DNA of 10,720 nt from an uncultured Terrimonas sp. Its GTDB lineage: Bacteria; Bacteroidota; Bacteroidia; Chitinophagales; Chitinophagaceae. Where the stretch lies: contig CAMPJQ010000045.1 in assembly GCA_946886925.1 (NCBI GenBank), positions 1-10,720 of the forward strand. Direction: 5' to 3'. Position 1 is the first letter of the stretch, and each line of letters begins with the position of its first letter. Made by a program: the position numbers and the translations under genes. The notes below the pieces were generated by a model. It saw only the letters and a list, made by a program, of their open reading frames with translations, was not told where the DNA came from and searched no databases. This document shows positions 100 through 10,720 of the stretch, in pieces.

Positions 100-1620
100 A
101 TGAAAAGAATTATACTAATAACGCTCATCCTCATTACAGCCTGTGCTGCACTCACAGCGCAGCCAAAAGCAAAGCGCCCCAATATCGTTATCATTCTTTC
201 TGATGATCATGCTTACCAAACCATCAGTGCATACGGTAGTAAGCTCATGCAAACCCCCAATATAGACCGCATTGCAAAAGAAGGTGTGCTGTTCAGCAAA
301 GCCTATGTTACCAATTCTATATGCGGGCCAAGCAGGGCTGTTTTGCTCACGGGCAAATACAGTCATAAAAACGGGTTCAAGGATAATGAAACCTCCAATT
401 TCAATGCCGGGCAGGACCTCTTTGTAAAACAATTGCAGGCCAACGGTTATCAAACCGCGTGGGTAGGCAAATATCATTTGGGAACACAACCACAGGGCTT
501 CAACTTCTGGCAAATATTCCCCGGACAAGGCAGCTATTACAACCCCGATATGCTAATGATGGACGGCAGCAGGAAAAGAATAGAAGGGTATGCCGCCAAT
601 ATTGTTGAGGATGTAACCGAAAGCTGGTTAGACCAGCGGGATACCAGCAAACCATTTTGCCTGGTGATCGGGCATAAATCTACCCACCGTACATGGATAC
701 CCGACACAACTGACATGGGCACGTTTGATGATGTTACTTTTCCCTTGCCGGAAAATTTTTATGATGCGTACGATAACAGGGCGGCGGCAAAAGTGCAGGA
801 CATGACCATTGCCAAAACAATGATATTGGGTTATGATCTGAAAATGCTGGCTGCCGGTGATAAAGAACCTGCCGTTGAACGGATGAATGCCGCACAACGT
901 GCTAAATTTGATGCATATTATCAACCCATTTATGCAGATTTCAAAGCCCGTAATTTGTCGGGCAAAGCGCTAACAGAATGGAAATACCAGCGCTATATGA
1001 AAGATTACCTGAGCACAGCAGCCTCATTAGACAGGAATATAGGACGAACACTGGATTATTTGGACCAGCATGAATTAACTGATAATACCATAGTGATGTA
1101 TTTATCGGACCAGGGATTTTACATGGGTGAACATGGATGGTTTGATAAACGGTTCATGTACGAAGAGTCATTCAGAACACCGATGATGATGCGTTACCCA
1201 GGTGTAATTAAACCAGGTACAAAGCTGAACGAGTACGTAATGAACCTTGATATTGCACCTACCTGCCTCGACGCCGCCGGAGTAGCTATACCGCAAGACA
1301 TACAGGGAAAATCTATATTGCCTTTGCTCAATGGTAAAGCAAAAGGCCGTGAAGCGATGTATTACCACTATTATGAAAATGGTGAACATTCCGTATCGCC
1401 TCATTTTGGTGTGCAAACAAAAAAATATAAGTTGATCCGTTTTTACAAAAGAGTGGATAGCTGGGAGCTCTACGATCTGCAGAAAGATCCTCACGATATG
1501 TATAACCTGTATGGCAAAAAAGAATATGAAAAAATTACACGGCAGTTGAAATCACAGCTTAATGCATTGATAGCACAGTATGAAGATGAGGATGCAGGGC
1601 GGGTATTGAACGGTGGTTAG
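100..1620 (+). CDS. Exported S1-family sulfatase, N-acetylglucosamine-6-sulfatase / mucin-desulfating type
   Basis: This enzyme should hydrolyse sulfate esters from a glycan in the periplasm or at the cell surface. Residues 1-20 form a signal peptide (MKRIILITL... to about A20). The catalytic signature C75-G-P-S-R79 followed by LTGK is the CxPSR motif whose cysteine is converted to formylglycine by a maturase encoded elsewhere. Metal ligands are visible as D35-D36 and D337-Q338, with other expected active-site residues K124, H126, H192, H345 and K350. The length of 506 residues is normal. The sections GKYHLG, GHKSTHR, the 'PGQGSYYNPD' stretch near 141-150 and the WKYQRYMKDYL helix resemble the subfamily holding GlcNAc-6-sulfatases and mucin-desulfating sulfatase (SulfAtlas S1_11). 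That subfamily call is from memory, so the exact substrate is uncertain. It sits 14 bases after another probable sulfatase and 63 bases before a fucosidase, as in a glycan-utilisation operon. Confidence 0.9.
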   Translation: MKRIILITLILITACAALTAQPKAKRPNIVIILSDDHAYQTISAYGSKLMQTPNIDRIAKEGVLFSKAYVTNSICGPSRAVLLTGKYSHKNGFKDNETSNFNAGQDLFVKQLQANGYQTAWVGKYHLGTQPQGFNFWQIFPGQGSYYNPDMLMMDGSRKRIEGYAANIVEDVTESWLDQRDTSKPFCLVIGHKSTHRTWIPDTTDMGTFDDVTFPLPENFYDAYDNRAAAKVQDMTIAKTMILGYDLKMLAAGDKEPAVERMNAAQRAKFDAYYQPIYADFKARNLSGKALTEWKYQRYMKDYLSTAASLDRNIGRTLDYLDQHELTDNTIVMYLSDQGFYMGEHGWFDKRFMYEESFRTPMMMRYPGVIKPGTKLNEYVMNLDIAPTCLDAAGVAIPQDIQGKSILPLLNGKAKGREAMYYHYYENGEHSVSPHFGVQTKKYKLIRFYKRVDSWELYDLQKDPHDMYNLYGKKEYEKITRQLKSQLNALIAQYEDEDAGRVLNGG

Positions 1621-1683
1621 GATCAACGATAATTATTCCTTTTACAGTACAAAAAATATAATCCCTATCTCACATTTAAAAAG

Positions 1684-3192
1684 ATGAATAAGAACAAACT
1701 GATAGTCGCAGCGTGTACACTATTGTGCAATATAACTTTAGGTCAGCAGGCAAAAGAAAACTATGCGCTGATACAGCCAGGAGATACGGAAAGAGATATT
1801 ATTAACAAGGCGGCTAATGTAACGCCTTCACCGCGACAGTTGCGCTGGCAACAACTGGAACTAACGGCATTTTTTCATTTTGGCATCAACACTTTTACCG
1901 GTAAGGAATGGGGTGATGGAACGGAAGACCCTCAAATTTTTTATCCCACTGCATTAGACGCGAAGCAATGGGTGATCACTGCAAAAAACGCCGGCATCAA
2001 ACAGGTGATCATTACGGCCAAACACCACGATGGCTTTTGCTTATGGCCTACAAAAACCACCCGCCATTCGGTGGCAGCCAGCCCCTGGAAAGAAGGTAAA
2101 GGAGATGTGGTAAAGGAAGTAGCTGATGCATGCCGCGCCTATGGCATTGGGTTTGGTATTTATTTATCGCCGTGGGACAGGAATGCTTCCGTATACGGAA
2201 CGGATACCTACAATGATTTTTTTGTTCAGCAACTCACAGAATTGCTCACCCGTTATGGACGTGTGGACGAAGTGTGGTTTGATGGCGCCAATGGTGAGGG
2301 ACCCAACGGGAAAAAACAGGTGTATGATTTTGAAAGATGGTATAGGCTTATACGTGAGCTGCAGCCTGCTGCCACTATTGCCATTATGGGACCAGATGTA
2401 AGATGGGTAGGAACCGAAAGTGGCTATGGGCGCGAAACAGAATGGAGTGTTGTGCCTGCCAATAATTTAGATCAGAGTGAAATTGCTTCGGGTTCCCAGA
2501 ACGGCCTTGCTTTTAAGCCGCAGGGCGACATGACCGGAAATGATTTGGGCAGCCGGGAAAAAATTATGAATGCAAAGGGGCTGGTATGGTACCCGGCAGA
2601 AACAGATGTATCTATACGCCCGGGATGGTTTTATCATCCCAAAGAAGACGACAGAGTGAAGACACCGGAAAAACTGCTTGACATTTACTATAGTTCTGTA
2701 GGAAGGAATGGTGTTTTATTGCTGAATATCCCACCCGATAAAAGAGGGGTGATCCATGAAAATGATGTAGCAAATCTGATGGCATGGAAGAAATTGATTA
2801 CTGAAACTTTTGCCGTGAATCTTGCCAATGGAGCAAGACTGAATATTGGAAACAAGGGAAAGTTTATTCTTGATCATGACTACGATACATACTGGACCAC
2901 CAGGAAAACTGATACCACGGCTGTTATTGAGCTCAAACTGAAAGAGAATAAAACATTTGATGTACTGCTGCTGCAGGAAAATATTACTGTTGGGCAGCGC
3001 ATTGAGCAATTTGTTCTGGAATACCAGGATGGAAAAGAATGGAAAAAAATTGCGGAGGGCACAACTGTGGGGTATAAACGATTGATCCGCTTTGATCCAG
3101 TAACGGCAAACAAAGTGAGGCTTCGTATCCTGTCATCAAGACTAAACCCTACGCTCTCTGAATTCGGATTGTATAAGCAGGCTCAACCGTGA
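1684..3192 (+). CDS. Exported GH29 alpha-L-fucosidase with C-terminal F5/8-type C (CBM32-like) domain
   Basis: The protein should remove alpha-linked L-fucose from glycan ends. Residues 1-20 are a signal peptide ending in LG-QQ. The GH29 (beta/alpha)8 domain covers about 47-365, with H65 in FHFG, E76-W77, the KHHDGF motif with H114-H115 and the nucleophile D200 in VWFDGA. E245, in the GTESGYGRETEW stretch, lies exactly 45 residues after the nucleophile. That is the spacing I recall for the D/E pair in GH29-B enzymes acting on alpha-1,3/1,4-fucosides of Lewis-type structures, so E245 is the likely acid/base. Residues about 375-500 form a beta-rich F5/8-type C domain (DYDTYWTT near 399-406, ending LSEFGLYK), probably for sugar binding. 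The 502-residue length suits this architecture. It is 63 bases downstream of the sulfatase on the same strand with no visible terminator between them, so the two are probably co-transcribed and act on the same sulfated, fucosylated glycan. Confidence 0.92.
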   Translation: MNKNKLIVAACTLLCNITLGQQAKENYALIQPGDTERDIINKAANVTPSPRQLRWQQLELTAFFHFGINTFTGKEWGDGTEDPQIFYPTALDAKQWVITAKNAGIKQVIITAKHHDGFCLWPTKTTRHSVAASPWKEGKGDVVKEVADACRAYGIGFGIYLSPWDRNASVYGTDTYNDFFVQQLTELLTRYGRVDEVWFDGANGEGPNGKKQVYDFERWYRLIRELQPAATIAIMGPDVRWVGTESGYGRETEWSVVPANNLDQSEIASGSQNGLAFKPQGDMTGNDLGSREKIMNAKGLVWYPAETDVSIRPGWFYHPKEDDRVKTPEKLLDIYYSSVGRNGVLLLNIPPDKRGVIHENDVANLMAWKKLITETFAVNLANGARLNIGNKGKFILDHDYDTYWTTRKTDTTAVIELKLKENKTFDVLLLQENITVGQRIEQFVLEYQDGKEWKKIAEGTTVGYKRLIRFDPVTANKVRLRILSSRLNPTLSEFGLYKQAQP

Positions 3193-3281
3193 ATGGAGGA
3201 GGTTACAGGTTACAGGTCTCAGGCAGGGACGTATGCCCTGCAACTTGCAACTTGTACCCTGCGCCCCGCACCCTGTAACCT
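3193..3281. repeat. Inverted array of degenerate 7-bp repeats between convergent genes; possible bidirectional terminator
   Basis: The gap between the fucosidase stop and the Rieske stop is built from 7-bp units. On the right side six units follow in perfect 7-bp register from 3240: GCAACTT, GCAACTT, GTACCCT, GCGCCCC, GCACCCT, GTAACCT. The left side (3200-3220) carries the same unit in reverse orientation: AGGTTAC, AGGTTAC, AGGTCTC. The outer arms pair perfectly (AGGTTACAGG at 3200-3209 with CCTGTAACCT at 3272-3281). At the centre a hairpin forms from GCAGGG (3223-3228) and CCCTGC (3236-3241) with a 7-base loop. The last unit overlaps the TAG of the Rieske gene by two bases. A fold-back over the whole gap could stop transcription from both sides, although there is no clear U-tract. 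A related element lies at 5334-5366. Confidence 0.7.
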
Positions 3282-3711
3282 AATTAACCGTAAGCGTATT
3301 ATTATTAACGGTAACTGTATACTTTTTTAACGATGATGGAGCTGGTCCCATGGTTACGGCTCCGCTGATATTATATTCACTGCCATGACAGGGACATTTA
3401 AATCCGCTGGCGCCGGCATCGTAATTTACAGTGCATTGCATATGTGTGCAAATAAGACTTAATGCCACAAAAGAAGCGGCCACATTGCCTGTTGCCGTTC
3501 TGATAACAATTACACTACCGCTGGATTTTGAACTTCCGACCGAAGCAAGTTCCGAATTAAGATTGGCCGTAATCAGAGCATTTCCGCCACCGCCGGGTGG
3601 AGGAGGTTGAACATTATTATCTGAAGATTTGGAACAGGCTGCTAATAAACTTCCCGCGCATATGGCTACGGTTGCCTGGCTGATGTCATGAAGAAAATCC
3701 CTGCGTTCCAT
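3280..3711 (-). CDS. Small Rieske [2Fe-2S] lipoprotein
   Basis: This 143-residue protein carries a Rieske iron-sulfur cluster and should act as an electron-transfer protein on the outer side of the inner membrane or in the envelope. The cluster motifs are C88-T-H90-x-x-C93 and C106-P-C108-H109-G-S. By family rule C88, H90, C108 and H109 bind the cluster and C93/C106 form the disulfide. The Pro loop is seen as GPAP near 122-125. The N terminus has RR-D-F-L (residues 3-7), like a twin-arginine signal, then a hydrophobic stretch and a lipobox LAAC with C26. A low-complexity Ser/Asn/Pro/Gly linker (about 27-44) separates the anchor from the domain. It lacks the transmembrane helix and long neck of bc1 Rieske subunits, and no cytochrome b gene is nearby. 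It begins 22 bases after the DUF5777 stop and looks like the last gene of the minus-strand operon. Confidence 0.9.
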   Translation of the reverse strand: MERRDFLHDISQATVAICAGSLLAACSKSSDNNVQPPPPGGGGNALITANLNSELASVGSSKSSGSVIVIRTATGNVAASFVALSLICTHMQCTVNYDAGASGFKCPCHGSEYNISGAVTMGPAPSSLKKYTVTVNNNTLTVN

Positions 3712-3733
3712 ATATGTTTTTTAAGATGAATAA

Positions 3734-4630
3734 TTAACGTTTTTTACCCAGATTGAAAGAACGTGAAATATTGAAGCCAAAATAAATATCACCCTTCCCC
3801 CAACTCCCGGTAGTACGTCCAAGGAATAAAGGCTCCACCATGCCCTGGGAGTTGGTAACATGCACCTGGAAAACATGCCCCCCTGTTTCAATATCAAAGC
3901 CGGCCGAAAATGAATTATACACTTTGAATGAATTGACCTGGTTATCGGGCAGGTAATTATACTCGATATTAATGCTCGAACGTTTAGTAATCTTCATTCT
4001 GCCCCCTATACCCAATACAAATACATCATTTTTATCGGCTACCGTTGGCACCAGGTTATAGTGCAGGTATGACGGAGACAATTGCAGCGACAAATTCCTG
4101 CTGAGCTTTCTGGCCACCAGCAACTGCAAAGTGTAACTGGTGCGGTACTTCGCGTTGAGATACGGTTTATCGCTATACCTTAGCGAAGTATAAGCTACAC
4201 CTGCCAGCGCAGTAACCGAAAGCGGAATGCGTCCGGCGGGGCCCTCAGATTGGCGCAGTAATTTACCTTTCAGGTAACCGTCGTATGTTTTCTGAAAAGT
4301 ACTTCGACCAATGCCCACCGTTAGTTCATCGGTTAGCCCATAGTCAAATCCCATGCGCATGGTAGCATTGTCTAATCCAAAAAATTCGTATCCCCCTTCA
4401 TTTATTTTCCCAAAACGGTGCATGATCATAAACAACAGTACTCCTTTGGCGGGCGTTTCTACAGATTGTGTATTGATGATATGCGTGCCTTTGAATGTTC
4501 CTGTAACATGACCAGCCTCTTTATTTACCATCATGGAATCTTCCAGCATATTGAGCAAACTGGAATCCTGCGCCGTTGCGATCCCGGCAAAGCCTGTGCA
4601 CAAAAAGAAAAACAATGCATAATATTTCAT
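3734..4630 (-). CDS. DUF5777-family outer-membrane beta-barrel protein
   Basis: The ATG at 4628-4630 begins MKYYALFFFLCTGFAGIATAQ, a clean signal peptide. The longer frame from 4687 would add 19 residues ahead of it that are polar and unsuited to export, so I take the shorter start (298 residues). The mature part has alternating beta-strand segments, the motif 'MHRFG...GYEFFGLDNATMRMG', then 'DYGLTDELTVGIGRS' and a final strand ending NISRSFNLGKKR. This matches what I recall of the DUF5777 barrel family in Bacteroidota, whose function is unknown. It probably sits in the outer membrane. It lies 93 bases after the YceI gene and 22 bases before the Rieske gene, which suggests a role together with those envelope proteins. 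The barrel assignment is firm in style; the family name is from memory. Confidence 0.75.
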   Translation of the reverse strand: MKYYALFFFLCTGFAGIATAQDSSLLNMLEDSMMVNKEAGHVTGTFKGTHIINTQSVETPAKGVLLFMIMHRFGKINEGGYEFFGLDNATMRMGFDYGLTDELTVGIGRSTFQKTYDGYLKGKLLRQSEGPAGRIPLSVTALAGVAYTSLRYSDKPYLNAKYRTSYTLQLLVARKLSRNLSLQLSPSYLHYNLVPTVADKNDVFVLGIGGRMKITKRSSINIEYNYLPDNQVNSFKVYNSFSAGFDIETGGHVFQVHVTNSQGMVEPLFLGRTTGSWGKGDIYFGFNISRSFNLGKKR

Positions 4631-4723
4631 CCGTATATTTTTAATGTTTTTATTGGTTGGATGGAACGCCCTGATATATATTCCCATTTGTGTTAAATCT
4701 TTTACATGGGCGTTTCATATAGT

Positions 4724-5269
4724 TCATTTTACAGGTTTGCAACTAATATTCACCTGCACATCAATTTGTTCGGCAATTTTGTCTCTTACAATACCCGGGA
4801 TTGTGATGTCAAAATCCTGCGGCAAAAGAGCAAAACGGGCCGTTCCCGTCAACCCATCCCCCGTGATCTCAATAGTTGCCGGCGTGTTAATGGATTTTTC
4901 CACACCATGCAATGTAATCACACCCTGTGCCTGCACATTGTACACCCCTGGCTTCTGCGGATCAACATCACCGGTAAATGTTCCTTTAAAAGTTGATTTG
5001 GGATGCCTGTCGCTTTCTACATAATTTTCGTTAAAATGCTCCTGCATCAGTTCCTTTCTGAATAAAAAACTTTTCATGAGCATAGAAAAAGCGATTTTTT
5101 TTTTGGAAAGATCTATAGCGGCATATACCTGGTTATTTTCTGCCTTAATATCTTCCATTGGTGTTTTGGAAAAAAAGTTGATAACACCGGTTCTGGTAAT
5201 ATACACTTGCGCGGATGCCACCGGAATCAACAGTGCGCAGAATGCAATAAGTAATACAGATTTCTTCAT
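4724..5269 (-). CDS. Periplasmic YceI-family protein (lipocalin-like, polyisoprenoid binding)
   Basis: Residues 1-20 are a signal peptide cut after ASA (MKKSVLLIAF... ASA-QV). The mature 160 residues match the YceI fold: 'VINFFSKTPMEDIKA' near 29-43, 'AIDLSKKKIAFSM.MKSF.F' near 51-70, 'HFNENYVESDRHPKSTFKG' near 78-96, and 'GVITLHGVEKSI' near 116-127. YceI domains are small beta-barrels that in known structures hold long isoprenoid chains, so a quinone or other polyprenyl lipid is the likely ligand; that is knowledge of the family, not something the sequence proves. The length is typical. The start is the only good ATG, with the signal peptide directly following. It sits between the cytochrome c lipoprotein (99-base gap) and the DUF5777 barrel (93-base gap). 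Those wider gaps leave room for an internal promoter or RNA processing, but I see no convincing -7 box in either. Confidence 0.9.
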   Translation of the reverse strand: MKKSVLLIAFCALLIPVASAQVYITRTGVINFFSKTPMEDIKAENNQVYAAIDLSKKKIAFSMLMKSFLFRKELMQEHFNENYVESDRHPKSTFKGTFTGDVDPQKPGVYNVQAQGVITLHGVEKSINTPATIEITGDGLTGTARFALLPQDFDITIPGIVRDKIAEQIDVQVNISCKPVK

Positions 5270-5333
5270 GATCTAAATTTTTTGTGGCAAGGATGTAGCT
5301 GGCGGATTAGTTGGTTAATCGATTCCTTTCATT

Positions 5334-5366
5334 AGGGTGAACCCTGCAACCCTTAACTTGTAACCC
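5334..5366. repeat. Second, shorter copy of the degenerate 7-bp repeat element
   Basis: On the plus strand the units are AGGGT (reverse arm), then GAACCCT, GCAACCCT, TAACTT and GTAACCC, i.e. the same G-Y-A-A-C-Y-T unit as at 3240-3281 with one-base slips. The left end forms the near palindrome AGGGT-GA-ACCCT (5334-5345). It ends two bases from the TAA of the cytochrome c gene (5369-5371), just as the first copy abuts the Rieske stop, and has the same orientation relative to that gene. It may help stabilise or end the 3' end of the upstream mRNA segment. Confidence 0.55.
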
Positions 5367-5368
5367 GT

Positions 5369-5740
5369 TTAATCCTGCTTCGTTCCTGCCGCTATCCAGG
5401 CCTTTATTTTATTGATCTCGCAATCAGACAGTTTGCCTCCGTTATCAGGCATGGGGGGATAGCCGCTGGCATGGGTAATTACGCCCACCAGGTTACCGTT
5501 ATCGGCCTGCGTTTTAACATTAGCATATCCATCTAAACTAACATTACCATTTACGATACCATTGGCATGACAGGAGTAACAGTTGGTTGTAATAATGGGT
5601 AAAATATCTGCACTGTATTTCATGCCGCTGGTATCGCATTGCTGTACTGTCATCAACATATCTTCGGATGCTTTGGAACAGCTACCCAAAGCCAAAACAA
5701 AAAGAATCAGAGCCCATATATATAGAAGACTACGGATCAT
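5369..5740 (-). CDS. Small c-type cytochrome lipoprotein
   Basis: A 123-residue single-heme cytochrome c anchored by lipid. The signal peptide MIRSLLYIWALILFVLALGSC carries a lipobox LGSC with C21 as the lipidated residue. The heme site is C54-Y-S-C57-H58, and M97 in YPPMPDN is the likely sixth ligand. C35 and C107 could form a disulfide, as the fold suits the pattern 'ADILPIITTNCYSCH...PPMPDNGGKLSDCEINKIKAWIAAG', which is common in Bacteroidota and Planctomycetes small cytochromes. It should carry electrons in the periplasm or at the membrane surface. The gene starts 10 bases after the OB-fold gene stop, so the two are co-transcribed. A 7-bp repeat element follows its stop. Its electron partner is not shown by sequence; the Rieske lipoprotein three genes on is the obvious candidate. 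Confidence 0.88.
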   Translation of the reverse strand: MIRSLLYIWALILFVLALGSCSKASEDMLMTVQQCDTSGMKYSADILPIITTNCYSCHANGIVNGNVSLDGYANVKTQADNGNLVGVITHASGYPPMPDNGGKLSDCEINKIKAWIAAGTKQD

Positions 5741-5750
5741 ACGCTTGATT

Positions 5751-6161
5751 TTATAAAATGATGATGCAATCGGTTAGGTTAACATCCATATTAAAGCCTG
5801 TGCATTTTCCCTTCACCACTATTTCCATCCCTTTTGTTATATGATTTGACTCTAAAGCTGATGCAGGTGAAAAAAAACAACTTATACCACCTCCCTCCGG
5901 CTGCATGCCCAGTATCAATACTGCGCCATTGCCATTAAGGATAATGTCATCTACCTTTCCTTTAACCTCAATTACTTTGTTTAGAAACTTCTCATTTGCC
6001 GCAGCCTCATCGGTATTATAACCTTCATACAAAAGGGCGGCGCTCACAGAAAATTGGGTGTCTTTGCCAGCTATACCTTCCCGCGGCTTATTGTACCAGT
6101 ACCAGGCAACTGCCAGGCATACCGCTACCAGTGCCAAAAAAAGAATTATTTTTTTTCGCAT
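5751..6161 (-). CDS. Membrane-anchored OB-fold protein (tRNA_anti-like family)
   Basis: The N terminus MRKKIILFLALVAVCLAVAWYWYNKPREG is a single membrane anchor with its tail outside the cytoplasm. The rest (about 100 residues) fits the 'tRNA_anti-like' OB fold: a leading helix 'SAALLYEGYNTDEAAANEKFLNK', then strands 'VIEVKGKVDDIILNGNGAVLILG', 'GGGISCFFS', 'KGMEIVVKGKCTGFNMDVNLTDCIII'. Despite the family name there is no reason to think it binds tRNA; the domain is found in envelope proteins of Bacteroidota with no known role. I chose the ATG at 6159-6161 over a TTG three codons upstream (6168-6170), because it leads directly into the anchor; the protein is then 136 residues. The two cysteines are kept in the domain core. 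It lies 23 bases after the beta-barrel regulator gene and 10 bases before the cytochrome gene. Confidence 0.72.
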   Translation of the reverse strand: MRKKIILFLALVAVCLAVAWYWYNKPREGIAGKDTQFSVSAALLYEGYNTDEAAANEKFLNKVIEVKGKVDDIILNGNGAVLILGMQPEGGGISCFFSPASALESNHITKGMEIVVKGKCTGFNMDVNLTDCIIIL

Positions 6162-6184
6162 ATGCTTCAATACTATTGCTATCG

Positions 6185-7561
6185 TTAATGGAATTTCTTT
6201 CCGATACCTATAAATATACCACCACTGTTTAGTGAAAGATTACCCTTGCCCATACCGGAAACAGGCAACCTGAAATAAGGTTCTATACGAAACTGAAAGG
6301 ATTTCCCGATGCTCCGTTCATAGCCTACCCCCAGGTTTATAGCTGCCATCCAGGCTTGTGAATTTTCTTTGTACGTATATCCTTTTGTGTGCACATCGCC
6401 GTAATATTCATAGGTGTAATCGTAATATTCTTTGTTCATCAAATAAGACGACATGCCACCCGTAATGAACCAGTCGTTGTTTTTACCGGTACTGAAATTG
6501 TAACGTATATTAACCGGTATAGTGATCATACGGCAATTTCCGTCAACCGAATAAATTTCTGTATTGTTCCAGTACTGGCCCAGTTTGGCTTTGTCGAAAT
6601 ATTCACCTTTTGTATAGTAAAGTTTCTTTTCCCATAATGCTCCGGCTTCTGCATTCCACCGTTTGCTAATCCGGTAGCCGAACAATAACCCGGTACTATA
6701 TCCTAAACCCGATATTTTTTGAAACTTAACCGTACTTATATCGGGGGCTACCAGCGCCTGCATATAGAAATACCGGTTCTTGGTTAATGACGGAATCTGT
6801 TTAGCCTGTTCCTGCGGCGGATCCTGTTGAACCTTACCGCTTTCGCGAACCGTGTGGTTATGCATCATATATTGTTCTGCTGTTAGCCCGGGCAATACCA
6901 TGCCCCTCATGTCAACTTTTTGCAGGAGCAAAGCAGGCGCATACGACAAACCCCTTAATGACTCTCCTGCTTTGTCCTGCATATTTCCCAACTTATCCTG
7001 GTAGCTCGTTACATGTTGAGAACTTCCATTGGCATAAGGCAAGGGCGTGGTTTTTATTTTATTATCCCGGGTGTATTGATTTTTGGGATCATTTTTTGAT
7101 ACAGCATCGTTCAGCCTTTTATCAACATTATGGCTTAACTGCAAACCTCCGTCTTTGTCTTCATCGGTTATCAAAGAACTGCTATTGGTTTGATCACGGA
7201 CAGAATTACTGCCTGGCTTTGCCTTATCGGCGTCTGTAAAATCAAGGCCACGCACAGTACCGGCAGGCTGCATTTTATTGGTTCCGGGCTGCTGATAGGT
7301 AGTTTCACCTGCATTTTTTACCGGGCGTTTATTAAAATTTTTTTCCCAGGTATTATGCGCCATCCACCCGGCAGGGAACAACAGGAACCACCAGAAAATA
7401 AACCGGCGTTTTTTCTTTTTACCCCCTTCCGGCAAACTTTGTACGCTGTGCAAACTGGCATGCACGCTTTCCCAGTCAGACGCCTTTTGGGTATCCATCT
7501 CATAGTTTTCCGCAGCTTTACGGAAAAGATGTTCCATATCATCATTCTTCAGGTAAAACAT
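6185..7561 (-). CDS. Dual membrane-spanning regulator (Dma-like anti-sigma factor with C-terminal outer-membrane beta-barrel)
   Basis: The 458 residues have an unusual order. Residues about 1-50 are cytoplasmic and charged (EHLFRKAAENYEMDTQKASDWESV), ending in a KKKKRR stop-transfer block. Residues 54-68 (FIFWWFLLFPAGWMA) are one transmembrane helix. Residues about 70-260 are low-complexity, rich in N, Q, K, S, T and D, and probably disordered, long enough to cross the periplasm. Residues about 263-458 are a small outer-membrane beta-barrel with aromatic strand ends, finishing IFIGIGKKFH. This is the plan of the dual membrane-spanning anti-sigma (Dma) proteins described in Bacteroides thetaiotaomicron, which hold a partner ECF sigma factor and react to outer-membrane state. 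The gene overlaps the ECF sigma gene by 13 bases, which fits that pairing. A second ATG at 7535-7537 (residue 9, MEHLFRK) would give an 11-base gap instead; the first is preceded by AAGGA nine bases away. Function is inferred from architecture and context. Confidence 0.8.
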   Translation of the reverse strand: MFYLKNDDMEHLFRKAAENYEMDTQKASDWESVHASLHSVQSLPEGGKKKKRRFIFWWFLLFPAGWMAHNTWEKNFNKRPVKNAGETTYQQPGTNKMQPAGTVRGLDFTDADKAKPGSNSVRDQTNSSSLITDEDKDGGLQLSHNVDKRLNDAVSKNDPKNQYTRDNKIKTTPLPYANGSSQHVTSYQDKLGNMQDKAGESLRGLSYAPALLLQKVDMRGMVLPGLTAEQYMMHNHTVRESGKVQQDPPQEQAKQIPSLTKNRYFYMQALVAPDISTVKFQKISGLGYSTGLLFGYRISKRWNAEAGALWEKKLYYTKGEYFDKAKLGQYWNNTEIYSVDGNCRMITIPVNIRYNFSTGKNNDWFITGGMSSYLMNKEYYDYTYEYYGDVHTKGYTYKENSQAWMAAINLGVGYERSIGKSFQFRIEPYFRLPVSGMGKGNLSLNSGGIFIGIGKKFH

Positions 7562-8124
7562 AACACATTATCCTTATTATCTTTTACAAGGTATTTTTGC
7601 AGAAACGCCCTGGCCCTTGCAAGGTTCGATTTTGATGTACCAACAGATATGCCCAGTATCTTCCCGATTTCCTGGTGCGAATAACCGTCAATTACATACA
7701 TATTGAACACGGCTCTGTACGAGGGACTCAGTTTTCTTATCAACTCAATAATTTCTTTATACAGCAACTGCTCATCTGATCTCACTTCGGCTTCATGACC
7801 GTTCCATGCATCTTCTGTTATAGGTTGATACTTTTTTTGTGCCTGGTTTACACGTATATGGTCTATTGCCGTATTAATTACTATCCTGCGCATCCATGCC
7901 ATCAATAAACTTTCCACATTGGCGGCATGCAGATATTCAAATTTGCCGAAAGCCCGGAATATCTTTATGAAAGCATCGTTCGTAACTTCGGCGGCGACTT
8001 CATAGGAACTGAGATAACGGTATACCGTTTTTAATGCAAATCCCAGGTATTTTTCGTAAAAAACCTTCTGACATTTCGCATCATTGGCAGCACAGCCCTT
8101 TATCAGATGTAACAATTGTTCCAA
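7549..8124 (-). CDS. ECF-type RNA polymerase sigma-70 factor (Das-like partner of the downstream regulator), TTG start
   Basis: A 191-residue ECF sigma factor. Region 2 spans about 20-95 ('FYEKYLGFALKTVYRYL', 'EVAAEVTNDAFIKIFRAFGKF', 'WMRRIVINTAIDHIRVNQ'), and region 4 about 125-185 ('IIELIRKLSPSYRAVFNMYVIDGYSHQEIGKILGISVGTSKSNLARARAFLQKYL', the helix-turn-helix that reads the -35 box). There is no in-frame ATG before region 2. The frame is closed by a TAA 27 bases upstream, so translation must begin at TTG 8122-8124, TTG 8113-8115 or a rare ATA. TTG at 8122 gives the usual family N terminus (LLHLIKGC...). A TTG start may keep the level low. The gene overlaps the anti-sigma-like gene by 13 bases, suggesting translational coupling. 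It leads a run of six minus-strand envelope genes, which are candidate members of its own regulon. Confidence 0.92.
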   Translation of the reverse strand: MEQLLHLIKGCAANDAKCQKVFYEKYLGFALKTVYRYLSSYEVAAEVTNDAFIKIFRAFGKFEYLHAANVESLLMAWMRRIVINTAIDHIRVNQAQKKYQPITEDAWNGHEAEVRSDEQLLYKEIIELIRKLSPSYRAVFNMYVIDGYSHQEIGKILGISVGTSKSNLARARAFLQKYLVKDNKDNVLCFT

Positions 8125-8159
8125 ACCGCTTATAAACTTTATTGTTATTAATTACGGGG

Positions 8160-8211
8160 TTTGCTGAGCAAAGGTTGCGCAGCAACCCTAAATTTTTACC
8201 CTTGGTAAAAA
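8160..8211 (-). promoter_or_regulatory. Three consecutive perfect hairpins in the probable 5' leader of the sigma operon
   Basis: Three perfect inverted repeats with three-base loops follow one another. TTTGC/GCAAA is at 8160-8164 and 8168-8172; GGTTGC/GCAACC at 8173-8178 and 8182-8187; TTTTTACC/GGTAAAAA at 8193-8200 and 8204-8211. They lie 36-87 bases ahead of the TTG start and downstream of a candidate -7 box at 8231-8238, so they would be in the mRNA leader. The middle hairpin resembles two 7-bp repeat units (AGGTTGC, GCAACCC) head to head. No U-run follows, so a simple terminator is unlikely. A role in mRNA stability or start control is inference. Confidence 0.5.
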
Positions 8212-8362: not shown

Positions 8363-8863
8363 CTAAAATCCTCTGTCATCTGCTGAAGGTCCGTAAATAG
8401 AAGGCACGGGTATATTATTCAGGCGCATATATACGGTTAATTGCCCGCGATGATGAACCATATGATTAATCGCTGATTCGACATTTTCTTTTTTGGAAGA
8501 AGTGTACAGCACCTGCCCCTGGTTTTTAAGAGCTAAAAGTTCGGCAAGTTCCCCTTCCTTAATAAGGCTTAGTGCCTTTTTCGCTCCTTCCACATTCTCA
8601 TCAAAATGCGCTACCAGTTCGGCGGTGTTTGTTGGTTTAACATGTTCAAAACTGGCAAAATCAATCTCAGATTTCTCGATCATATGTGTGATCCATTTAG
8701 GAATTTCCGCCACCAGTAAGGCCAGATAACCCATGGTCATAGATTTTTCGTGGGGCTTCCAGCCAAATAAACTTTCAGGAATTCTTTCCAAACATTTACG
8801 GGTAGCAGTAACTTCTGCTTCCAGTTCTTTTACAAATGCTTCGCTAAAAATGGTATCGTTCAC
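8363..8863 (-). CDS. DinB-fold (DinB_2) family protein, GTG start
   Basis: A 166-residue four-helix-bundle protein of the DinB/YfiT-like superfamily, whose members are often metal-dependent thiol transferases or of unknown role. The conserved C-terminal motif is H134-M-V-H-H138-R-G-Q-L-x-x-Y-M-R, where H134 and H138 are the expected metal ligands. The helix that usually gives the first histidine reads GYLALLVAEIPKW (45-57), with Leu near residue 50 where many relatives have His, so the metal triad looks incomplete. The GF-W-KPHEKSMTMG section (33-45) is typical. The start is GTG at 8861-8863; the frame has a TAA nine bases further up, so no ATG is available. It is divergent from the propeller gene and 238 bases upstream of the sigma gene on the same strand. 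The cytoplasmic location is inferred from the lack of a signal peptide. Confidence 0.88.
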   Translation of the reverse strand: MNDTIFSEAFVKELEAEVTATRKCLERIPESLFGWKPHEKSMTMGYLALLVAEIPKWITHMIEKSEIDFASFEHVKPTNTAELVAHFDENVEGAKKALSLIKEGELAELLALKNQGQVLYTSSKKENVESAINHMVHHRGQLTVYMRLNNIPVPSIYGPSADDRGF

Positions 8864-8993: not shown

Positions 8994-10043
8994 ATGAACT
9001 GTATATTTTTCAGACTGCCTGTTTTATATTTCATCTCCGGTAAAAATAAAATGACTGGCTGCCTGCTTTTATTGTTTGTTCATACAGGCTGCAATAATAT
9101 GCCTGAAGAAGCATTAATAAATACGCTGCAAAAAGAAAATGAGTTTACTATTCAGAAAAAAGATACACTAGCAAAAATTGAAGTATTGTATCGTTCCTCA
9201 AACAATGGAAAAACCTGGTCTTCCTTTTCCAATGGTATTCCGGAAAACGCTACTGTGAGTGGATTTACGACAAAATCAAATAAGATTTTTTTGGTTACTG
9301 TAGCACATGGTGCTTTTGTTTGGGAAAGCGGCTTTGCCGAATGGGAGCCCATCAATAATGGGCTGCCTGATAGTGTAAATCTTAATGCCATTGCTGTAGC
9401 AGAAAATGTATTGGTGACAGGAACGCTCAGGCAGGGGATATTTGTGTCACCAGATGAAGGCAATACCTGGAAACCTTCCGGCAAGGGCTTGCAAAATATA
9501 TCTGTAAGGGCTTTCATTTTTACAAAGGATATATTTTTAGCCGGAACAGATAAAGGAATTTATGCTTCCCCCGATAAAGGAAACACATGGGAACATGTAT
9601 TTGGCTTAATGCAGGTAAATGGATTTACCACTTTAAACGAAAAGATTTATGCAGCCGCCGCAAATGGCGCAGTAATGACAAATAATTCAGGAAAAACCTG
9701 GGAATATATATACAAGCAACATACATTACACGACATATCCAATGATGGGCAGTTTATATATGCAATGACATTGGGAGAAGGTTTATTAAAAACGAGTAAT
9801 GATGGACTGAACTGGCAAAATGCCAATACCGGGTTTGGCCCGGTAAACTTTTACACTTTTGAAGTTAAGAACAGGAACCAGGATCTGTTTGCAGCGCAAT
9901 GGCATGGCATTTATTATTCGGCTAACCGGGGAAGGTACTGGTCTAAAATTAATACCGGCCACAATGGATTGCCCGGTTCAACTGCATTTACAACGCTGGA
10001 AGTAACCGACTTTGGCATATTGGCCGGAACGGGCCTCAAATAA
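8994..10043 (+). CDS. Seven-bladed Asp-box (BNR-like) beta-propeller, probable lipoprotein
   Basis: The 349 residues are built from about 40-residue blades. Six clear Asp-box turns (S/T-x-D/N-x-G-x-T/N-W) lie at 68-75, 152-159, 192-199, 229-236, 267-274 and 309-316, and a worn one near 110-117, giving seven blades. The protein ends in 'ILAGTGLK', the inner strands of a blade whose outer part 'VLYRSSNNGKTW' is at the N terminus, i.e. ring closure by both ends. Repeats of this kind occur in sialidases, Ycf48 and xyloglucanases, but no sialidase FRIP arginine motif is visible, so an enzyme call is not justified; a binding or scaffold role is possible. The N terminus carries K18-N-K-M20-TGCLLLLFVHTGC33, a short lipoprotein-like signal with C33. 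An ATG at 9051 (M20) is an alternative start but would lose the lysines. It lies alone between a divergent DinB gene and a 270-base gap. Confidence 0.82.
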   Translation: MNCIFFRLPVLYFISGKNKMTGCLLLLFVHTGCNNMPEEALINTLQKENEFTIQKKDTLAKIEVLYRSSNNGKTWSSFSNGIPENATVSGFTTKSNKIFLVTVAHGAFVWESGFAEWEPINNGLPDSVNLNAIAVAENVLVTGTLRQGIFVSPDEGNTWKPSGKGLQNISVRAFIFTKDIFLAGTDKGIYASPDKGNTWEHVFGLMQVNGFTTLNEKIYAAAANGAVMTNNSGKTWEYIYKQHTLHDISNDGQFIYAMTLGEGLLKTSNDGLNWQNANTGFGPVNFYTFEVKNRNQDLFAAQWHGIYYSANRGRYWSKINTGHNGLPGSTAFTTLEVTDFGILAGTGLK

Positions 10044-10313: not shown

Positions 10314-10720
10314 ATGGAAACAAAAACAGTCAGCAACCGGATGTTTTCTATCGTTGTGCTGTACGATATGCAAACAAAGTTTTTTGCAAATGTTATTGAA
10401 GGACTTTCTGACGAAGACAGGCACAAGCGGCTCAATACAAAGGCCAATCATATTGCCTGGCTTACGGGAAGCCTGGTAGAACAACGCTACGAAATAGCGA
10501 ACCTGCTTGGCTCTGATCTTAAGCAATCGGCGCATGAGCTTTTTAAAGACAATAAAGGTATACAGGATGATATTACTTATCCTTCACTGGCGGCATTTAA
10601 AAAAGACTGGGAAAGCATTACGCCTGTTTTAAGAGAAGCACTGGTTACCGCAGATGATAAAAAGCTTGATGAATCCTTTGAGATGATGCCGGGTATGAGC
10701 ATGACTTATTATGACCTCAT
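10314..10720 (+). CDS. Second DinB-fold family protein (partial, runs off right edge)
   Basis: From the ATG at 10314-10316 the frame is open to the end of the window, giving 135 residues without a stop. It reads METKTVSNRMFSIVVLYDMQ..., with a first helix ending 'FANVIEGLSDED', then N45-H46-IAWLTGSLVEQRYEIANLLG, the second helix of DinB-like bundles, and 'MPGMSMTYYDL' at the edge, just before the segment where these proteins carry their H-x-x-x-H metal motif. Many relatives have 'GH' in the helix-2 motif; here it is G52-S53, so the first metal histidine may be absent, as in the other DinB-fold protein at 8363-8863. The missing C-terminal part should be about 30-40 residues. The 'AATATGG' start context has no Shine-Dalgarno, common in this phylum. 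Its role is unknown. Confidence 0.8.
   Translation, partial: METKTVSNRMFSIVVLYDMQTKFFANVIEGLSDEDRHKRLNTKANHIAWLTGSLVEQRYEIANLLGSDLKQSAHELFKDNKGIQDDITYPSLAAFKKDWESITPVLREALVTADDKKLDESFEMMPGMSMTYYDL

What the first reader, a model, noticed from the sequence alone, without database searches (positions are those of the whole stretch)
3280..8124. A sigma/anti-sigma pair heading an envelope redox gene set: candidate undescribed system
Seven minus-strand genes follow one another: ECF sigma factor, dual-membrane regulator, anchored OB-fold protein, cytochrome c lipoprotein, YceI protein, DUF5777 outer-membrane barrel, Rieske lipoprotein. Gaps are -13, 23, 10, 99, 93 and 22 bases. The set has one heme centre, one 2Fe-2S centre, a fold known to hold isoprenoid chains and a barrel of unknown role, but no cytochrome b, oxidase or dehydrogenase. 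Inference: an outer-membrane-sensing sigma factor controls a small electron- or quinone-handling module in the envelope. I do not know of a published description of this whole set.
Basis: partly seen in the sequence, partly recalled or inferred. Interest (0 to 1): 0.75.

Follow-up and report, generated by a model that had tools for sequence, protein, structure and literature searches.

The report
Sigma-controlled outer-membrane redox operon
A stretch of bacterial DNA carries an outer-membrane-sensing switch next to genes for a small electron-carrying kit in the cell envelope; the kit recurs across its phylum with three kinds of electron carrier, and its job is still unproven.

Summary
In detail: seven same-strand genes at 3280-8124, from an Agriterribacter-like bacterium. 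The set is a real, recurrent module. In 60 DUF5777 loci, one from each of 60 Bacteroidota genomes, YceI lies within 3.5 kb in 52 and the cytochrome in 43; in the flanks beyond, 1 and 0. The carrier varies: cytochrome c, Rieske or (new here) a cupredoxin lipoprotein. The regulator has the published Dma domain order. Its clade was found in 22 of 247 genomes, all 22 among the 98 with a DUF5777 match (P = 3e-10, kinship ignored). I found an ECF-like promoter, GGCAACC-N~16-CGTAT, before the sigma gene (window 8180-8150, minus strand), before most sigma genes of the same clade elsewhere, and at some DUF5777 operons without a neighbouring sigma gene. Control of the module is thus well supported in silico; the redox mechanism is inference. 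Best guess: a Dma-type switch turns on an outer-membrane electron/isoprenoid-quinone kit, most likely antioxidant. No paper in the library contains 'DUF5777'. Not shown: co-transcription, ligands, direction of electron flow.

The parts
8150..8180 (-). Predicted ECF-type promoter GCGCAACC-TTTGCTCAGCAAACC-CCGTAATT, 25 bases before the sigma start codon
   Evidence: PWM score 19.0; background 99th percentile 14.6 (n=1166). The window site is one of the training sites.
7549..8124 (-). ECF sigma factor (191 aa, TTG start)
   Evidence: overlaps the regulator gene by 13 bases
6185..7561 (-). Dual-membrane regulator, Dma-like anti-sigma (458 aa): cytosolic helices 8-18 and 27-38, TM helix 53-75, disordered tether about 80-240, C-terminal barrel 264-457
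   Evidence: AlphaFold2: barrel pLDDT 92-98, tether mostly under 50; genome co-occurrence
5751..6161 (-). Membrane-anchored OB-fold (tRNA_anti-like) protein; alternative TTG start at 6170
5369..5740 (-). Monoheme cytochrome c lipoprotein with an export-signal-like mature N-terminus (CSKASED)
   Evidence: nearest solved family cytochrome c6
5270..5368 (-). 99-base gap holding an intergenic repeat (GTTACAAGTT...GGTTGCAGGGT type); no promoter-motif site on the operon strand
4724..5269 (-). YceI-family lipocalin with ordinary signal peptide (by eye)
3734..4630 (-). DUF5777 outer-membrane barrel, 12 predicted strands
   Evidence: (pLDDT 90.2); likely start ATG 4630
3280..3711 (-). Rieske [2Fe-2S] lipoprotein, ligands C88-x-H90 / C106-x2-H109, extra cysteines C93 and C108

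Best explanation
The locus is one regulated unit. The regulator spans both membranes: its barrel sits in the outer membrane, a long disordered tether crosses the periplasm, and a small cytosolic domain holds the ECF sigma factor. A disturbance at the outer membrane releases the sigma factor, which recognises GGCAACC-N~16-CGTAT and transcribes its own operon (positive feedback), and in some other genomes a distant DUF5777 operon. The product is an outer-membrane redox kit: YceI carries an isoprenoid (probably menaquinone) through the periplasm; a high-potential one-electron carrier lipoprotein (here cytochrome c and Rieske; elsewhere also a cupredoxin) sits on the outer membrane, perhaps surface-exposed; the DUF5777 barrel is its docking partner or pore; the OB-fold protein is an inner-membrane partner. 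The most likely job is to bring reducing power to the outer membrane to quench oxidative damage, by analogy with BcnA-LcoA. Shown by computation: gene content, recurrence, carrier replacement, predicted folds, promoter motif, genome co-occurrence. Inferred: sigma release, quinone ligand, direction of electrons, antioxidant role.
For: Recurrence: near/far counts in 60 loci, YceI 52/1, cytochrome 43/0. Carriers: Rieske in 2 of 68 cytochrome loci and 9 of 13 without (Fisher 1.4e-7); 1 of 43 against 5 of 17 (p=0.006); cupredoxin where neither is present in L227 and L233; 130 of 141 loci hold at least one of the three. Regulation: GCAACC upstream of sigma in 18 of 23 sigma-regulator loci against 53 of 1258 other genes. 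Sites not used in training: 8 of 10 further sigma genes of the clade against 1 of 11 weaker paralogues; 5 of 7; 13 of 20 (six of them the loci). Module genes without adjacent sigma carry it in L019, L006, L079, L053, L056, L204 and L240. Regulator only in genomes with DUF5777, 22 of 22. Dma order of domains, and Dma2 loss strongly raises its own operon in B. thetaiotaomicron (passages). YceI proteins hold isoprenoids or ubiquinone-8 in most structures, and BcnA-LcoA limits lipid peroxidation (abstract, passages). YceI-like and cytochrome c domains in one protein, Cbp2D (passages).
Against: No expression, heme, EPR or ligand data. Most DUF5777 loci have no regulator nearby (near in 8 of 60), so this control is lineage-specific. 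In the 60-locus set module genes as a whole are not clearly richer in the motif than other genes (4 of 194 against 4 of 651, p=0.09). Of six sampled loci whose regulator lies elsewhere, 2 reach 14.5 and one is 14.48, against 1 of 46 without regulator (p=0.03). Genome-wide the strict motif is no commoner than its reversed control, 29 against 30 in 8 genomes. Carrier swaps: at most 3 informative independent pairs on supported branches, sign test 0.25. The OB-cytochrome association is not independent of kinship. No cytochrome b561 is in the set. Dma1 and Dma2 of B. thetaiotaomicron act on vesiculation and PULs, not redox.
Confidence: 0.5

Rival explanations
1. An outer-membrane electron conduit: electrons leave the cell through the DUF5777 barrel and a surface cytochrome (or Rieske, cupredoxin) to an extracellular acceptor or to surface oxidative enzymes such as LPMOs.
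For: Monoheme cytochromes have an acidic mature N-terminus like the Bacteroidota lipoprotein export signal: acidic at +6 and at +7 in 78% each of 51 with a lipobox out of 66, against 31% each in 16 other lipoproteins (signal described, passages). Cbp2D of Cellvibrio has predicted YceI-like and cytochrome domains and a proposed role in LPMO reduction (passages).
Against: One heme in the window's carrier; 12-strand barrel, nearest by VIA-align to KdgM, FapF and NanC. Class I cytochrome c, Rieske and cupredoxin are high-potential carriers as a rule (recalled), a poor fit to low-potential metal respiration. The window's own signal is imperfect, with K at +3 but acids only at +6 and +7.
Confidence: 0.2
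2. The electron carriers feed an inner-membrane terminal oxidase or reductase encoded elsewhere; YceI and DUF5777 are envelope accessories and the module is part of ordinary respiration.
For: Cytochrome c6-like carrier, bc1/b6f-like Rieske, wide presence, 98 of 247 genomes.
Against: The usual partners are YceI and an outer-membrane barrel, and the carrier class changes; control by an envelope-spanning regulator would be unusual for core respiration (inference).
Confidence: 0.15
3. A lipid or isoprenoid transport system: YceI and the DUF5777 barrel move a polyisoprenoid or anionic lipid; the redox proteins only modify it or keep the site reduced.
For: YceI structures hold isoprenoids (passages); barrel fold close to channels for anionic sugars (KdgM, NanC) and, lower, to FadL-type transporters.
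Against: A one-electron carrier of some class is near in 130 of 141 loci, which points to electron transfer as a core need.
Confidence: 0.15

Closest known systems
Dma/Das dual membrane-spanning anti-sigma systems of Bacteroides thetaiotaomicron (PMC13088901: abstract, introduction and passages seen; the 2024 PNAS paper PMC10927553 is not held)
   Same: Order of domains: N-terminal anti-sigma domain, TM helix, disordered tether, C-terminal barrel; adjacent ECF sigma gene; operon headed by the pair.
   Different: Cargo is a redox module, not vesiculation or PUL genes; ECF21 membership of the sigma factor not tested.
BcnA-LcoA lipocalin/cytochrome b561 system (PMC9113575: abstract and passages seen)
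   Same: YceI-family lipocalin linked to a heme protein; envelope protection shown there by mutants.
   Different: No cytochrome b561 here; c-type cytochrome, Rieske or cupredoxin lipoprotein instead, plus an outer-membrane barrel.
Cbp2D/Cbp2E of Cellvibrio japonicus (PMC12542752: passages seen)
   Same: Predicted YceI-like domain together with a c-type cytochrome domain, acting outside the cell.
   Different: In one large carbohydrate-binding protein; no barrel and no sigma control in the passages seen.
Outer-membrane porin-cytochrome conduits (MtrCAB, Cyc2; recalled)
   Same: Outer-membrane barrel with a c-type cytochrome.
   Different: Single heme, 12 predicted strands, carrier is a separate lipoprotein.
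bc1 / b6f / alternative complex III (recalled)
   Same: Rieske or cytochrome c subunits.
   Different: No cytochrome b or membrane quinol oxidoreductase among the window genes scanned.

Membership tests
Dma anti-sigma family | Single transmembrane helix after a short cytosolic N-terminal helical domain | tested here: met
   helices 8-18, 27-38 and 53-75 (middling confidence); which side is cytosolic is inferred
Dma anti-sigma family | Long intrinsically disordered tether | tested here: met
   no secondary structure between residues 76 and 263, mostly pLDDT under 50 up to 236; the stretch varies in length and sequence among relatives
Dma anti-sigma family | C-terminal beta-barrel | tested here: met
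   9 strands 264-457, pLDDT 92-98; Pfam OMP_b-brl_2
Dma anti-sigma family | Encoded beside an ECF sigma gene | tested here: met
   relatives
Dma anti-sigma family | Cognate sigma belongs to ECF21 | not testable with these tools
   No ECF-group models at hand; NCBIfam sigma70-ECF above its cut-off, Sig70_bacteroi1 below
Dma anti-sigma family | Represses its sigma factor | not testable with these tools
   Needs a deletion or binding assay
YceI lipocalins | YceI domain | tested here: met
   PF04264 54.1 bits (cut-off 23.7); matches 5ixg, 1y0g
YceI lipocalins | Bound isoprenoid or quinone | not testable with these tools
   Needs purified protein
BcnA-LcoA system | Linked cytochrome b561 gene | tested here: not met
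   none among the window genes scanned
Rieske proteins | C-x-H ... C-x2-H cluster ligands | tested here: met
   C88, H90, C106, H109
bc1 / b6f complexes | Cytochrome b partner | tested here: not met
   none among the window genes scanned
Multiheme porin-cytochrome conduits | Multiheme cytochrome | tested here: not met
   one CxxCH in the window's cytochrome (relatives often have a second, diheme one)
Surface-exported lipoproteins (LES) | K-(D/E)2 or related acidic signal at +2 to +6 | tested here: inconclusive
   family pattern Y/S-Y/K-D-N-E-E is similar; the window's CSKASED has K at +3 but acids at +6 and +7 only

The most novel reading that the evidence does not exclude
DUF5777, YceI and an exchangeable one-electron lipoprotein form an undescribed outer-membrane redox apparatus of Bacteroidota, a small wire or radical sink in the outer membrane that works with three chemically different carriers (heme, 2Fe-2S, copper) and is switched on in part of the phylum by a dedicated envelope-spanning Dma/ECF pair through a GGCAACC/CGTAT promoter.
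Probability: 0.35. Interest if true: 0.8.

Novelty: new variant of a known kind. Interest (0 to 1): 0.62.

Why it matters
DUF5777 matches occur in 98 of 247 sampled Bacteroidota genomes (5 of the 98 only weakly), yet no paper in the library holds the name. The work gives the family its usual partners, a class of cofactor, a regulator and a testable promoter. If right, it would show how an outer membrane, which has no respiratory chain of its own, is supplied with electrons, and it would add redox to what Dma-type regulators control.

Tried and rejected
Rfam: no match at the gathering threshold in the window. Generic sigma-70 promoter and terminator scan: 11 and 6 sites, about the number in shuffles, not used. 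Strict motif over 8 whole genomes: 29 matches against 30 for the reversed control; 8 of the 29 lie outside the predicted genes, 6 of these 48 to 74 bases before a gene on their strand: 5 are the sigma gene and one a radical-SAM/B12-binding protein. A looser pattern in 4 genomes gave 97 matches against 189 of the control. So no genome-wide regulon is claimed. DUF5777 by sequence against solved structures: none to E = 1. OB protein as a CcmE-type heme chaperone: no CcmE among the 25 of 45 families shown for 22 members; its best solved relative is a putative nucleic-acid-binding lipoprotein, 3f1z, E 0.0036. The OB/cytochrome association (42 of 68 against 0 of 13; 13 of 43 against 1 of 17, p=0.05) is not independent of kinship, so no mechanism is drawn from it. 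The flanking sulfatase and fucosidase were not seen as part of the set in relatives by eye; DinB gave 4 ORFs in 81 sequences, window included. Paper searches with YceI and redox terms (none; 20 of 202 listed; 12 of 1,213; 15 of 36) showed, in the listings, no title that describes the set; the Riemerella iron study (passages) names a YceI gene only.
Full report
Observation. The window holds seven minus-strand genes at 3280-8124 in the order sigma, regulator, OB-fold, cytochrome c, YceI, DUF5777, Rieske, with Pfam matches for each; the cytochrome match is just under Pfam's cut-off, but CxxCH and a conserved Met-Pro are present. The nearest named relatives are Agriterribacter (L001, A. humi, 92%).

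Recurrence. With profiles grown from the window proteins, within 3.5 kb and on the same strand, 69 of 81 loci (window included) hold YceI, 68 the cytochrome, 42 the OB protein, 25 the regulator, 23 the sigma and 11 Rieske. These are the closest relatives, so I drew a second set: 98 of 247 evenly drawn Bacteroidota genomes have a DUF5777 match, 5 of them only weakly, E 1e-4 to 1e-7. I picked by hand, from the match list, one locus from each of 60 of the 98, mostly stronger matches. YceI was near on the same strand in 52 of 60, cytochrome in 43, OB in 14, Rieske in 6, regulator in 8, sigma in 7; in the remaining flanks beyond 3.5 kb, either strand, the counts were 1, 0, 0, 0, 0 and 3. The gene set is real; DUF5777, YceI and a carrier are its core.

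Exchangeable carrier. In the first set Rieske occurs in 2 of 68 loci with the cytochrome and in 9 of 13 without (Fisher 1.4e-7); in the second, 1 of 43 against 5 of 17 (p=0.006). L068 keeps sigma-regulator and has Rieske where others have the cytochrome. L227 and L233 have sigma-regulator, neither cytochrome nor Rieske, and a plastocyanin-family lipoprotein beside YceI; a cupredoxin also stands beside the cytochrome in L230. In all, 130 of 141 loci have at least one of the three. On a quick DUF5777 tree the carrier state changes at least 7 times (11 loci without any carrier left out), but at most 3 informative independent pairs lie on supported branches (sign test 0.25), so the exclusion is not proven free of kinship. 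The window and L001 carry cytochrome and Rieske together; L244 has Rieske and a larger cytochrome.

Regulator. AlphaFold2 gives two short N-terminal helices, a helix at 53-75, an unstructured stretch to residue 263 and a confident barrel 264-457. This is the order published for Dma proteins of B. thetaiotaomicron, where loss of Dma2 strongly raised the genes of its own operon (PMC13088901, passages). I read the pair as Dma/Das-like; ECF21 membership was not testable. A profile of the regulator finds it (E <= 1e-20) in 22 of 247 genomes, and all 22 are among the 98 (handles compared by eye; hypergeometric 3e-10). By coordinates 15 of the 22 have it within about 3 kb of a DUF5777 match. The profile was partly built from DUF5777-linked regulators, at most six candidates per genome were scored in that search, and genomes are related, so the probability is indicative.

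Promoter. The hexamer most enriched in the 120 bases before the sigma gene is GCAACC: 18 of 23 sigma-regulator loci against 53 of 1258 other genes; CCGTAT is also enriched, 7 against 29. A two-block weight matrix was trained on 14 site strings from these loci, the window's among them (99th percentile of 1166 other genes 14.6). Of the 12 listed non-sigma genes above that line among those 1166, 7 are module genes (L017 and L009 OB, L079, L050 and L071 cytochrome, L053 and L056 Rieske; the L050 site lies inside the preceding gene) and 5 are not; among operon-first genes L019 cytochrome (19.3), L006 OB (18.4) and L059 OB (15.0) also pass. I then searched 18 genomes whose listed locus lacks an adjacent same-strand pair: 12 have a strong regulator match (E 1e-50 or better) elsewhere or, in L059, divergent and beside it. 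Of these 12, six (L006, L019, L053, L056, L059, L079) have a module site of 14.6 or more, the other six (L013, L016, L023, L046, L055, L075) not; none of the six genomes without a strong match has one. Sites not used for training: 8 of 10 scorable sigma genes of the strong clade reach 14.6 (one of them heads a second DUF5777 copy), against 1 of 11 weaker paralogues; 5 of 7 new sigma-regulator loci; 13 of 20 in the phylum sample without the training locus, six of the 20 being loci. In Pontibacter the distant sigma gene and the cytochrome operon share the variant CCGTGATG. Against: L151, the Hydrotalea sigma gene, scores 6.5 although its OB operon scores 18.4; in the 60-locus set module genes pass 14.6 in 4 of 194 against 4 of 651 others (p=0.09), though two of those four others are a cupredoxin gene heading YceI-DUF5777 (L227) and a heme-protein gene before the cytochrome (L254); of six sampled loci with a distant regulator two pass 14.5 and one has 14.48, against 1 of 46 without (p=0.03); genome-wide the strict motif is no commoner than its reversed control.

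Effector proteins. DUF5777 is predicted as a 12-strand barrel with pLDDT 90; the closest solved folds by VIA-align are KdgM, FapF and NanC, which shows fold, not function. YceI matches solved YceI proteins, most of which hold isoprenoids according to PMC9113575 (passages). The Rieske ligands are intact, with the extra cysteine pair of bc1/b6f-type proteins (role of the pair recalled). The monoheme cytochromes have an acidic mature N-terminus resembling the Bacteroidota lipoprotein export signal of PMC5080379 (passages), imperfect in the window.

Mechanism. I think the switch senses the outer membrane and the kit supplies it with electrons through a quinone or isoprenoid carrier and a high-potential one-electron lipoprotein, most likely against oxidative damage, by analogy with BcnA-LcoA. 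The high potential of the three carrier classes is recalled knowledge. Conduit, respiration and lipid-transport readings remain open.

Novelty. The control half is a known class with a new cargo. For the effector half, the search for DUF5777 found no paper and searches with YceI, Rieske, cytochrome, quinone, Bacteroidetes or Bacteroidota listed no title that describes it; only part of each listing was shown, and the library lacks most subscription papers. I rate it a new variant of a known kind.

Noticed in passing
window 100-3192: A sulfatase and an alpha-L-fucosidase with an F5/8 type C domain lie on the opposite strand next to the operon's end, perhaps a sulfated-fucan utilisation pair; not seen as part of the module in relatives (by eye).
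   Followed up: partly
window 3235-3281 and 5341-5365: A repeat of the type GTTACAAGTT...GGTTGCAGGG lies below the Rieske gene and in the cytochrome-YceI gap; L001 has the same kind of repeat in that gap.
   Followed up: partly
L013 11061-15306, L016, L050, L063, L077, L078: A second YceI gene is followed by proteins of about 950 and 255 aa near the DUF5777 operon; representatives are a Reg_prop/Y_Y_Y histidine kinase (L078) and a LytTR response regulator (L042): perhaps an alternative control system for the same module.
   Followed up: partly
L054 11073-11831 and four further loci: A protein gene directly follows DUF5777 in five loci; the representative scanned is rhomboid-family.
   Followed up: no
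L014 7952-8812, L230 12438-13307, L073 7431-8300, L039 2868-3335: Lipoproteins with PF03640 repeats, or a CHRD domain (L039), sit in or beside the operon in several lineages.
   Followed up: no
L201 3746-7180, L245 1581-4097: In some loci with the order OB ... DUF5777-cytochrome-YceI the neighbours include a FecR-type anti-sigma protein (L201) or a TonB-plug/FecR_C protein (L245).
   Followed up: no
L012 and L038: Records titled Beijerinckiaceae and Euryarchaeota carry Bacteroidota-like DUF5777 loci; the bins are probably mislabelled or contaminated.
   Followed up: no
window 8363-8863 and 10314-10718: Two DinB-type genes flank a BNR/sortilin-like repeat protein gene (8994-10043); the second DinB-like assignment is by eye only.
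   Followed up: no
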